From Aureococcus anophagefferens (Eukaryota > Sar > Pelagophyceae > Pelagomonadales > Pelagomonadaceae): 64,000 nt of DNA. The notes under the pieces are model-generated. The model worked only from the letters and a program-made list of their open reading frames with translations. It ran no database searches and was not told where the DNA came from. Below are positions 6,858-9,090 of the stretch, in pieces; within the stretch, counting starts at the first letter, position 1, and each line of letters starts with the position of its first letter. The position numbers and the translations under genes were made by a program. The stretch lies in the NCBI RefSeq assembly GCF_000186865.1, contig NW_008705569.1, positions 65,211-129,210 of the forward strand, in the 5' to 3' direction.

Positions 6858-9090
6858 ATGGTGGAGCCTCTCGTGCCGCACGTGGAGCCGCCGATTTCTC
6901 CCGCGCTCGGCAGCGACGACGAGCCGCCGGCGTCTCCCCGCAGCGACGGACCGGCGTCGCCCAACGACGACGACGGCGCCGACGAGCTGTCGATCCGCGA
7001 CGCCGACGCGCTCTGCACGCTGCGCCTCTCGCTGGCGTCCGGCACGCGGCGCGACGACGTGCGCGTGTCCTGCGCCGAGCGGCGCATCCTCGTCCAGTGC
7101 GGCGGGCCCGCGCAGCGGCGGCTGACCATCGACCTGCCCGGCGACGTCGACGGCTGCCGGACGTCGTTCCTGCCGCCGGCCGGCGGCCGCGAGCGGCTCC
7201 GCGTGCGCGCGTCGAAGCGCCGGCCCGGCCCCTGGGCGGCCGACGCCGTGCGCGTGCGCCGGCGGCGCGGGCGGCTGCGAGAGCGGCCGCGGCGCTACGC
7301 GGACGAGCTGCCCGACAGCGACGACGACGACCGCTTCTCGCCGCCCGTCGCGCCGGAGGCGTCCGTGGCCACGTTCCTGTCGGAGCGCGCCCCAGCGTCG
7401 TCGAGAGATTTCGCAGAAACGTCATGTGGTAGGCTCGCCGCGGTCCGCGACCTGGACCCGACGACGGTCGCCGGGCGCCCGCGGCGCGCCCCGCCGGACG
7501 CGGACCCCGTGGCCAAGTTCTTCGCGGAGCTTCGCGCCGAGCAGCTCGCCGCGACGCCCGCGCCGCGGCTCGCCTGGTGGCGCCGGCTCCGGGCGTTCGT
7601 CGTCGCGTTCGCCCTGCGGGTGTTCGCGGTCTTCGCCGGCTTCTTCCGGAGGAGACGAGCCCCGCGGCCCGTCGCGTCGTCCGTGCGGGGGCTGCCCGAG
7701 GACGTGCTCGTCGCCGCGCTCGCGCGCGTGCCCCTCGGCGACCACCGCAACGCCGCGCGCGCGTCGGCGTGCCCACGCATCATCGTCCTCCCGCGAGACT
7801 TTGACCGGGGACGTCGTCGCGCGTCGCAGGCTCGCGTGCCGCCTCTTCGCGCGCGTCGTCGCGTCCGCGGCGTTCCGCGAGGAGCGGCGCGCGTCGGGCT
7901 TCGTCGAGGCCGTGCTCGCGACGTCCGGCGGCCGCTTCGGGCAGCCGAAGCCGCGCGCGTCTGTGTGCAAATCAACCCCGACCAAACTCGGTCAAATCGA
8001 CGTCGTTTCGGCTGATTTTTGGACGAGTCGATTGCTCTCATCGAGTTCTCCACGAAGCGCAGAAGAACTTGCGTCGAAACATTCGAATACTTCTCACATT
8101 TGATTCGCACGCAGGCGCGCGTTCAGCGACGCGTCGATGTTCGCCGGCGGCACGTGGTCGCGGCTGCCGCGGCTGCCCGCGAAGCGCTACGGCGCCGTCG
8201 CCTGCGTCCTCGACGACGAGTTGGTCGTCATCGGCGGCAGCCTCGACGACAACCTCGGCGCGAAGGCGGCGCGGCGTTTTTTCGCGCGGGGAGCAAAAAA
8301 ACAAACGTCCGTCGCGCAGGCACGGCGTCCGGCGTGCGGCGGAACCTGCGGCTCGGCGGCGACCGGGGCGCGTGGCGGCCCGTGCCGCCCATGGCCGTCG
8401 CGCGCGGCGGCGGCTGCGCGGGCGGCGTCCTCGTCGACGCCGCGGGCCGGCGGCGGCTCGTCGTCGCCGGCGGCGTCGCGCCGTCGCGGCCCGTCGCGGA
8501 CGTCGAGGCGCTCGACCGCGGCGCGTGGGCGCGGCTCGGCGTCCCGTGGGAGATCTTGACCGGGAAATCAACGCGATGCGTGGTAGGCGCGGCTGCCGCC
8601 CATGCCCCGGGCGGTCTGCTCCTGCGCGGGCGGCTGCATCGGTCCCCTGCTGCTCGTCGCCGGCGGGCAGGAGGGCGACCTCTTCACGGCGTCCGCGGCG
8701 CTCCAGGTCTTCGACGGGGCCGCGTGGACGCTGCGCGCGCCCATGCCGGCGCCGCGCTGGGGCGCGGCGTCCTGCGTCGTCGGCGGCAAGCTCGTCGTGT
8801 CGGCGGGCTGGCACCGGCGGGGGCTCCAGACGAAGCCCTGCCGCGACACGGTCGTCTACGACCCGGCGACGGACGCGTGGACGGCCGCGGCGCCGCTGCC
8901 GAGCCCGCCGCGGCCCTGCAGCACCATGGTCACGTTCCGGGGCACGGCGCTGTTGCTCGGCGGCGCGGGCCCGCCCATCGCGCTGTCGCCGGCGCTCGAC
9001 GAGTGGCGACCGTGCCGCCTCGGCGACGACGTCGACCTCCACTGCCCGGAGCTCCGCTACTGGGCCATCGCCGCCGTCGGGGAGCTGTAA
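6858..9090 (+). CDS. F-box / kelch-repeat protein, multi-exon
   Basis: Proposed exons: 6858-7396, 7433-7768, 7830-7964, 8115-8275, 8320-8540 and 8587-9090, giving 631 codons with every frame joined. ATG 6825 in the same frame is an alternative start. After a disordered N-terminus, an F-box appears as GLPEDVLVAALARVPLGD plus, after splicing, CRLFARVVASAAF. Kelch repeats follow (RLPAKRYGAVACV, LVVIGG, VPPMAVARGG, LVVAGG, RAPMPAPRWGAASCV, AAPLPSPPRPCSTMV). F-box/kelch proteins are substrate receptors of SCF ubiquitin ligases. A hydrophobic stretch (FVVAFALRVFAVFAGFF) before the F-box could be a membrane segment. Splice sites are inferred from frame, domain continuity and the insertion pattern. 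Converges on TRM6, 31 bp apart. Confidence 0.8.
7393..7432 (+). mobile_element. Candidate introner-like intron (very short)
   Basis: CAGC then GTCGTC...TGGTAG; intron 7397-7432 would be only 36 nt. Flanks gcgcgccc / gctcgccg match at 6 of 8. It is stopless and in frame, so it could simply be coding. Its internal gagagattt and terminal tggtag resemble the 16744 and 8537 elements. Confidence 0.35.
7765..7829 (+). mobile_element. Introner-like intron inside the F-box
   Basis: CGGC then intron 7769-7829 (GTGCCC...TCGCAG). Flanking 8-mers gcgcgcgt and gctcgcgt match at 7 of 8. Deleting the insertion with one flank restores NAARACRLFARVV, the typical end of an F-box, which is strong support for an insertion. 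Confidence 0.72.
7961..8114 (+). mobile_element. Introner element, family 1, copy A (intron 7965-8114)
   Basis: 154-bp element starting CTGTGTGCAAATCAACC and ending TTTGATTCGCACGCAG. Its ends are inverted repeats of each other. Perfect 8-bp duplication gcgcgcgt lies at 7953-7960 and 8115-8122. Donor GT begins at the fifth base and the acceptor AG is the last two bases. Internal sequence matches the element at 62902-63104 (tcggctgatttttggacga, then tcgattgctctca). Confidence 0.88.
8272..8319 (+). mobile_element. Candidate introner-like intron between kelch repeats
   Basis: CGGC then intron 8276-8319 (GTTTTTTCGCG...CGCAG, 44 nt), phase 1, needed to connect LVVIGGSLDD to the next kelch blade frame. 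Flanks aggcggcg / gcacggcg agree at 5 of 8. Confidence 0.55.
8537..8586 (+). mobile_element. Introner-like intron with perfect 8-bp duplication
   Basis: CGGC then intron 8541-8586 (GTCCCGTGGG...GTGGTAG, 46 nt). The flanks gcgcggct at 8529-8536 and 8587-8594 are identical. Removing the insertion gives AWARLPPMPRA, a regular kelch blade edge. Confidence 0.75.

What the first reader, a model, noticed from the sequence alone, without database searches (positions are those of the whole stretch)
7961..8114. Introner family with inverted terminal repeats: same element in F-box/kelch and IFT80 introns
The introns at 7961-8114 and 62902-63104, in unrelated genes 55 kb apart, are homologous. Both start CTGTGTG(C/G)AAATCAACC and end with its inverted complement (..GCACGCAG / ..CCACGCAG). 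Each is flanked by an 8-bp duplication (8/8 and 7/8 matches). This is the signature of a DNA transposon that lands already spliceable: donor at base five, acceptor at its last bases. Introners are documented in Aureococcus; what I add is this family, its ends and its fit to the reading frame.
Basis: partly seen in the sequence, partly recalled or inferred. Interest (0 to 1): 0.9.

Follow-up and report, generated by a model that had tools for sequence, protein, structure and literature searches.

The report
Transposon-made introns in a brown-tide alga
Two introns in this stretch of algal genome are copies of a small mobile DNA element that turns itself into a removable intron when it lands in a gene; the element is of a known kind, but it is most likely cut out at a different point than first thought, and some public gene models make the same mistake.

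Summary
Window 7961-8114 and 62902-63104 are copies of one 203-bp element with 15-bp inverted ends and 8-bp target duplications. The element is an introner of Aureococcus anophagefferens, with about 1,600 end matches in this genome against 4 for a reversed control. Introners of this kind, in this species and of about this length, are already in print.

In 83 of 85 confidently coding copies the upstream target duplication starts with GC or GT on the gene's coding strand (background 20.6%). The best reading is that the intron is the upstream duplication plus the element: 7953-8114 and 62894-63104, both GC-AG, removed without changing the protein. Both element ends carry CAG, so the element works in either orientation (34 sense, 51 antisense). 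Donors show GT/GC and little else.

A public CTP synthase model and a Na+/H+ exchanger model use the base-five donor and add four residues. Near-identical CTP synthase sequences lack the element. Two further introner families occur in the fetched loci, one with a copy at window 16744-16824. No autonomous partner was found. RNA could not be examined here.

The parts
7953..8114 (+). Intron 1 as best read: upstream target duplication (7953-7960, donor GC) plus introner (7961-8114, acceptor ..CACGCAG)
   Evidence: GY rule; joined frame ..GQPKPRAFSDASMFAGGTW.. open
7961..8114 (+). Introner copy 1, family 1, 154 bp, 15.7% from consensus
   Evidence: nhmmer E 1.2e-33
8115..8122 (+). Downstream copy of target duplication GCGCGCGT, exonic after splicing
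62894..63104 (+). Intron 2 as best read: upstream target duplication (62894-62901, donor GC) plus introner (62902-63104, acceptor ..CACGCAG), 211 nt, in IFT80
62902..63104 (+). Introner copy 2, family 1, 203 bp, 7.4% from consensus
   Evidence: nhmmer E 5.8e-71
63105..63112 (+). Downstream copy of target duplication GCTCCGTC, exonic after splicing
62107..64000 (+). IFT80 gene (runs past the window end; 778 aa after removal of the intron)
   Evidence: 717.8 bits to the IFT80 structure 5n4a (that it is Chlamydomonas is recalled)
16736..16824 (+). A third introner-type intron, of another family (family 3): duplication GCGAGGCC (16736-16743) plus 81-bp element 16744-16824 ending TAG; downstream copy GCGAAACC 16825-16832 (6/8)
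   Evidence: joined frame ..HGRAESETPSHFEGGETLLLDQG.. open

Best explanation
These are introners: short, non-autonomous cut-and-paste DNA transposons. The element inserts with an 8-bp target duplication. In the gene's transcript the spliceosome uses the first two bases of the upstream duplication (GT or GC, supplied by the host gene) as donor and the CAG at the element's far end as acceptor. This removes element plus one duplication copy and restores the original coding sequence. Because the ends are inverted repeats, CAG is available at either end, so insertion in either orientation can be spliced. Insertions whose target does not start with GT/GC on the coding strand are missing, presumably removed by selection. 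Shown here: family, ends, duplications, coding-strand GY rule, phase match, asymmetric conservation of AG. Inferred: the actual splicing, and selection as the cause of the GY rule.
For: GY (GC/GT) at the duplication start on at least one strand: 92 of 93 resolved elements (13 further 5' end sites without a duplication of 7/8 or better were left out). Coding strand was called from codon usage, independently of the duplication, for 91 elements; 85 were confident. GY is on the coding strand in 83 of 85; of the 64 with GY on one side only, 63 agree with the coding strand (binomial p 3e-54 and 7e-18). The non-coding side has GY in 21 of 85, close to background (20.6% on the coding strand; about 22% per side in flanks), which argues against a transposase target preference. 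Donors: GC 42, GT 41, GA 2, others 0, against background GC 16.4%, GT 4.2%, GA 6.6%: GT about 11-fold, GC about 3-fold enriched. Phase 0/1/2 = 41/16/28, following the codon positions of GY (GT donors 24/1/16 against expected 0.56/0.03/0.41). AG kept 34 of 34 when the right end is the acceptor, 43 of 51 when it is not (p 0.019). From Unigene and EST alignments, 39.6% of A. anophagefferens introns are GC-AG (PMC3033335, passages).
Against: No RNA reads could be examined. A public CTP synthase model (P0131) and a Na+/H+ exchanger model (P0121) use the base-five GT. A passage in PMC7789003 says that A. anophagefferens introners show canonical splicing motifs, which does not sit well with GC donors. 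Two of 85 copies start with GA on the coding strand (L093, L100). Donor positions +3 to +8 show no clear consensus (only +6 has p below 0.05, uncorrected), so how the donor is found is unexplained. Homology scores favouring the restored protein cannot decide the donor, since removing element plus one duplication restores the ancestral sequence by construction.
Confidence: 0.88

Rival explanations
1. One reading: the element carries both splice sites (donor at base five, CTGT|GTG, and the terminal CAG). Each insertion adds 12 nt (4 from the element, 8 from the duplication) to the mRNA.
For: Base 5-6 is GT in 79 of 85 copies. The public CTP synthase model P0131 reads EALRCALRQF, i.e. this donor; the exchanger model P0121 reads GQLRCQLVI, the same four-residue addition with R where our DNA would give L, and P0124 has QLRC and then departs. 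Gozashti 2022 Fig. 2F legend describes exactly 4 + 8 bp for an Aureococcus family.
Against: It does not explain GY at the duplication start on the coding strand in 83 of 85. It would add four residues inside very conserved motifs, e.g. CTP synthase EALRQF and the segment before DKTGT of a P-type ATPase (sequence; motif recalled). The public models with this donor are at sites whose duplication starts with GC, so they may come from gene callers that expect GT (inference).
Confidence: 0.08
2. GY at the start of the duplication is a target preference of the transposase and not a splicing requirement.
For: In the first sample GY is on both sides in 19 of 62 elements; by the flank rates about 9 are expected among elements with GY on at least one side, or about 16 if one given side must have GY.
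Against: A preference for the duplication should be blind to the reading direction of the gene, but GY follows the coding strand in 63 of 64 one-sided cases, and the other side is near background, 21 of 85. GT is enriched far more than GC and GA is depleted, the order of donor strength.
Confidence: 0.04
3. Ordinary introns that became alike by gene conversion or segmental duplication.
For: Two similar introns in one window.
Against: About 1,600 end matches genome-wide, target duplications of 7/8 or better at 93 elements, both orientations relative to the gene, and near-identical sequences without the element.
Confidence: 0.01

Closest known systems
Introner elements of Aureococcus anophagefferens (Huff et al. 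2016, Nature; paper not held, known from recall and from passages in PMC9481584, PMC10228655, PMC7789003)
   Same: Species (best named hits are A. anophagefferens, 88% for IFT80 and 99% for CTP synthase), short non-autonomous DNA transposon with inverted ends and direct repeats, length (PMC9481584 passage: about 210 bp; here 203 + 8 = 211), both orientations (PMC10228655 passage), one splice site carried and the other co-opted (recalled)
   Different: I could not compare sequences with that paper. The coding-strand GY test, the acceptor-side AG asymmetry and the gene-model check are mine; some may repeat its unseen contents. PMC7789003 speaks of canonical splicing motifs, whereas about half of the donors here would be GC.
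Aureococcus sp. introner family 4 of Gozashti et al. 2022 (PMC9860276, Fig. 2F legend and methods passages)
   Same: 8-bp duplication; described with donor four bases inside the element
   Different: The published example spans 77 nt and is read as adding 12 nt. Family 3 here (79-81 bp in its best copies, GT at base 5-6) resembles it in size only; sequences not compared.
Symbiodinium introners (same paper, Fig. 2B legend)
   Different: 4-bp duplication; unrelated lineage

Membership tests
Introner | Many similar copies as introns of unrelated genes | tested here: met
   831 + 770 end matches, control 2 + 2; 85 of 91 scored copies in confidently coding sequence, against 387 of 636 windows of the 64 kb by the same test
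Introner | Spliced out of the transcript | not testable with these tools
   No RNA at hand. Joined frames open without a stop in 70 of 85 confident copies over 240 nt each side
Introner | Recent gain: empty site in relatives | tested here: inconclusive
   P0235 and P0219 (CTP synthase, 100% and 99% identical over 64% of the query) lack the element while retaining translated sequence of a neighbouring intron: most likely alleles without it, but only protein sequence was seen and a part-spliced transcript is not excluded. IFT80 homologs without an insertion cannot tell an empty site from a spliced one
DNA transposon (MITE type) | Terminal inverted repeats | tested here: met
   15 bp perfect in the consensus
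DNA transposon (MITE type) | Fixed-length target duplication | tested here: met
   8 bp at 7/8 or better in 93 elements (13 end sites left out); one 9-bp and one 7-bp case seen by eye
DNA transposon (MITE type) | Autonomous partner with the same ends | tested here: inconclusive
   None found. No hAT, KDZ, IS1595 or MULE domain matches (for hAT and KDZ the controls were silent too, so absence is not shown); P-like and DDE_4 matches lack these ends in the stretches read; the end variants read were all short copies
P-element superfamily | 8-bp target duplication | tested here: met
   that P elements make 8-bp duplications is recalled, and other superfamilies do so too
P-element superfamily | Shared ends with a P-type transposase gene | tested here: inconclusive
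   Not seen in the stretches read; flanks only partly readable

The most novel reading that the evidence does not exclude
In this alga a two-base GY, with almost nothing else, is enough as a splice donor when it sits at the start of the duplicated target. The base-five donor of public gene models, and possibly the published '12 added bases' for Aureococcus, would then be an artefact of gene callers that expect GT, with four false residues in many database proteins.
Probability: 0.45. Interest if true: 0.6.

Novelty: already known. Interest (0 to 1): 0.4.

Why it matters
Introners are a documented source of new introns on a genome scale. The coding-strand GY test separates splicing filter from target preference from sequence alone. 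It also suggests a systematic error in public Aureococcus gene models, checkable with one RNA-seq alignment, and gives a simple account of the very high GC-AG share of introns in this species that PMC3033335 called an enigma (the role of GC target duplications may already be in Huff 2016, which I could not read).

Tried and rejected
Comparing protein scores of the two splice models: the restored protein scored higher for IFT80 (717.8 against 711.6 bits) and in 4 of 5 Pfam pairs by 1.8 to 8.1 bits (the fifth domain ends before the junction, 57.6 against 57.5). I rejected this as evidence on the donor, because removing element plus one duplication gives the ancestral sequence whatever the spliceosome does.

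Branch-point idea: the shared end TTGATTTCCACACAG holds a TTGAT that looks like a branch site. It was not better kept at acceptor ends (T.A lost 4 of 34) than at non-acceptor ends (4 of 51). Not supported.

Autonomous partner: Pfam searches for hAT, KDZ, IS1595 and MULE gave nothing. PF13359 gave 4 matches; L122-L124 show none of these ends, and L125, overlapping L122, was not scanned on its own. Patterns of the end followed by unusual bases gave 12 and 14 places; the 12 of the first were all short copies (9 with a duplication found by script, 3 by eye), and 3 of the 14 could be read, all short copies.

P-like transposase lead: one P-type gene on contig 25 has in-frame stops and an intron whose 130 bp match the introner core (E 5.8e-18), without introner ends. 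Two further P-type matches with a 563-aa open frame lie near contig ends; the one read shows no introner ends or inverted ends. Kept as a lead only.

Sampling limits: the 93 copies come from the 100 places listed (contigs 1-3, exact starts) plus the window, so older copies are under-represented.

Full report
What was checked. The two introns are homologous copies of one element. Its consensus is 203 bp with a 15-bp perfect inverted end (CTGTGTGGAAATCAA), and it is flanked by 8-bp target duplications: 8/8 at 7953-7960/8115-8122 and 7/8 at 62894-62901/63105-63112. In the genome that holds the window (49.05 Mb, 86 contigs, unnamed) the 17-base start occurs 831 + 770 times with up to two mismatches, against 2 + 2 for the reversed pattern. 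Many copies match at both ends: in the first 60 regions and the window, 113 matches, of which 14 were dropped for lack of a clear duplication, gave 62 distinct elements. So a figure near 1,000 copies is my extrapolation.

The organism. The best named matches are Aureococcus anophagefferens proteins: IFT80 88% over 93% of the query, CTP synthase 99% over the whole query.

Where the donor is. Both reading models keep the frame, so frame cannot decide. I resolved 93 distinct elements with a duplication of 7/8 or better from 98 fetched regions covering the 100 listed places plus the window; 13 further 5' end sites without such a duplication were dropped. GC or GT begins the duplication on at least one strand in 92 of 93. 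By chance this holds for about 38% of 8-mers in the flanks. The coding strand was called from codon usage in 240 nt on each side, without using the duplication: 91 could be scored and 85 were confident. GY stands at the duplication start on the coding strand in 83 of 85. Among the 64 with GY on one side only, 63 agree with the coding strand. The two exceptions start with GA (L093, L100), and their joined frames also contain a stop. The opposite side has GY in 21 of 85, near the background of 20.6%, so the rule belongs to the gene's reading direction and not to the target site as such.

Donor strength and phase. Donor dinucleotides are GC 42, GT 41, GA 2, against a coding-strand background of 16.4, 4.2 and 6.6%. 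Intron phases 0/1/2 are 41/16/28 and follow where GC and GT fall in codons: GT donors 24/1/16 against expected proportions 0.56/0.03/0.41. Beyond the two bases there is little: of ten flanking positions tested, two have p below 0.05, uncorrected (-2 and +6).

The acceptor. All 85 copies end in CAG on the acceptor side; since ends were sought with at most two changes in CACNCAG, this count alone is weak. The fair test is at the right end, which was sought by the same rule in both groups: AG is kept in 34 of 34 copies where it is the acceptor and in 43 of 51 where it is not (Fisher p 0.019). As both ends carry CAG, the element is found in both orientations: 34 sense and 51 antisense.

What public sequences say. 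CTP synthase in this genome carries a family-1 introner in the EALRQF motif (locus L063). The annotated A. anophagefferens protein P0131 reads EALRCALRQF, which is the base-five donor. P0235 (100% identical over 64% of the query) and P0219 (99% over 64%) read EALRQF without any addition. They retain translated sequence of a neighbouring intron, so they are most likely genomic alleles without the element, though a part-spliced transcript is not excluded. The same two carry, after RDCGM, translated sequence that matches family 2 (best three matches about 80% identical) and is absent from L063: a reciprocal presence and absence, seen at protein level only. For the Na+/H+ exchanger (L098, duplication GCCAGCTC) the public model P0121 has the base-five addition, with R where our DNA would give L; P0124 has QLRC and then departs, and P0122 departs before it. 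For IFT80 the model P0001 runs into the element and skips conserved residues, while P0002 (99% identical over 76% of the query, 2,096-bp contig) has no insertion; it may be a spliced or an empty version. In all three genes the duplication starts with GC, which fits gene callers that expect GT; this is an inference from three genes.

Literature. Huff et al. 2016 is not held; I know its abstract from recall. Passages in PMC9481584 give about 210 bp as the characteristic length of A. anophagefferens introners, against 211 nt for the modal intron here. A passage in PMC10228655 says Huff et al. reported co-opted splice sites and both orientations. A passage in PMC7789003 says the A. anophagefferens elements have direct repeats, inverted ends and canonical splicing motifs; the last point goes against many GC donors. 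PMC9860276 (section 7 read whole; passages) describes a different Aureococcus family as adding 12 bp. PMC3033335 (passages) found from Unigene and EST alignments that 39.6% of A. anophagefferens introns are GC-AG, with a consensus U1 5' end, and called this an enigma. Of 7 completed full-text searches, one search found no paper with both 'introner' and 'P element'. I did not search for the gene-model artefact.

Other families. Family 2 (ends CWGGGCAGCAAAAGGG, 192 bp in three seed copies, 8-bp duplications) has 566 + 602 end matches (control 1 + 0) and shares an internal core with family 1. Family 3 (CRGCGTCC..TAG, 79-81 bp in its five best copies) has 313 + 275 matches (control 21 + 23) and a copy at window 16744-16824. 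In the 12 family-3 copies listed the 8 bases upstream begin with GT or GC (by eye; two alignments were shifted by one base, and in several, such as L024, the two duplication copies agree poorly); their coding strand was not tested.

Mobiliser. None found. P-type transposase genes exist and one holds an intron with the introner core, but no shared ends were seen in the stretches that could be read. An introner that landed in a transposase gene and lost its ends explains this equally well.

Verdict. A real and clear introner, already known in kind and probably as a family. The corrected splice reading and the gene-model warning are the useful additions.

Noticed in passing
window 16736-16832: Copy of a third introner family (81 bp, duplication GCGAGGCC/GCGAAACC, ends TAG) in a gene reading ..HGRAESETPSHFEGGETLLLDQG.. 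when the intron is removed; 588 start matches genome-wide, control 44.
   Followed up: partly
L087 1664-1855, L010 291-482, L110 293-484 and others: A second introner family, 192 bp, with different ends but an internal core shared with family 1; 566 + 602 end matches genome-wide.
   Followed up: partly
L121 (G000:C25:176872-180318): P-element-like transposase gene with many in-frame stop codons; one intron holds 130 bp of the introner core; 990 bases of the locus read N.
   Followed up: partly
L129 (G000:C11:1393300-1395700) and G000:C2:3449163-3449561: Two equally scoring P-type transposase matches, each in a 563-aa open frame and within about 5 kb of a contig end; no inverted ends found in 3.7 kb around the C11 copy.
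   Followed up: partly
P0131, P0121, P0124, P0001: Public Aureococcus gene models that seem to place introner splice sites wrongly.
   Followed up: partly
L061 990-1210: Introner whose flanks look like an inverted rather than a direct duplication (GTCATGTG.. / CACATGAC).
   Followed up: no
93 resolved elements: Copies lie mostly in coding sequence (85 of 91 confident coding against 387 of 636 windows of 488 nt in the 64 kb), although copies in non-coding DNA should be harmless.
   Followed up: no
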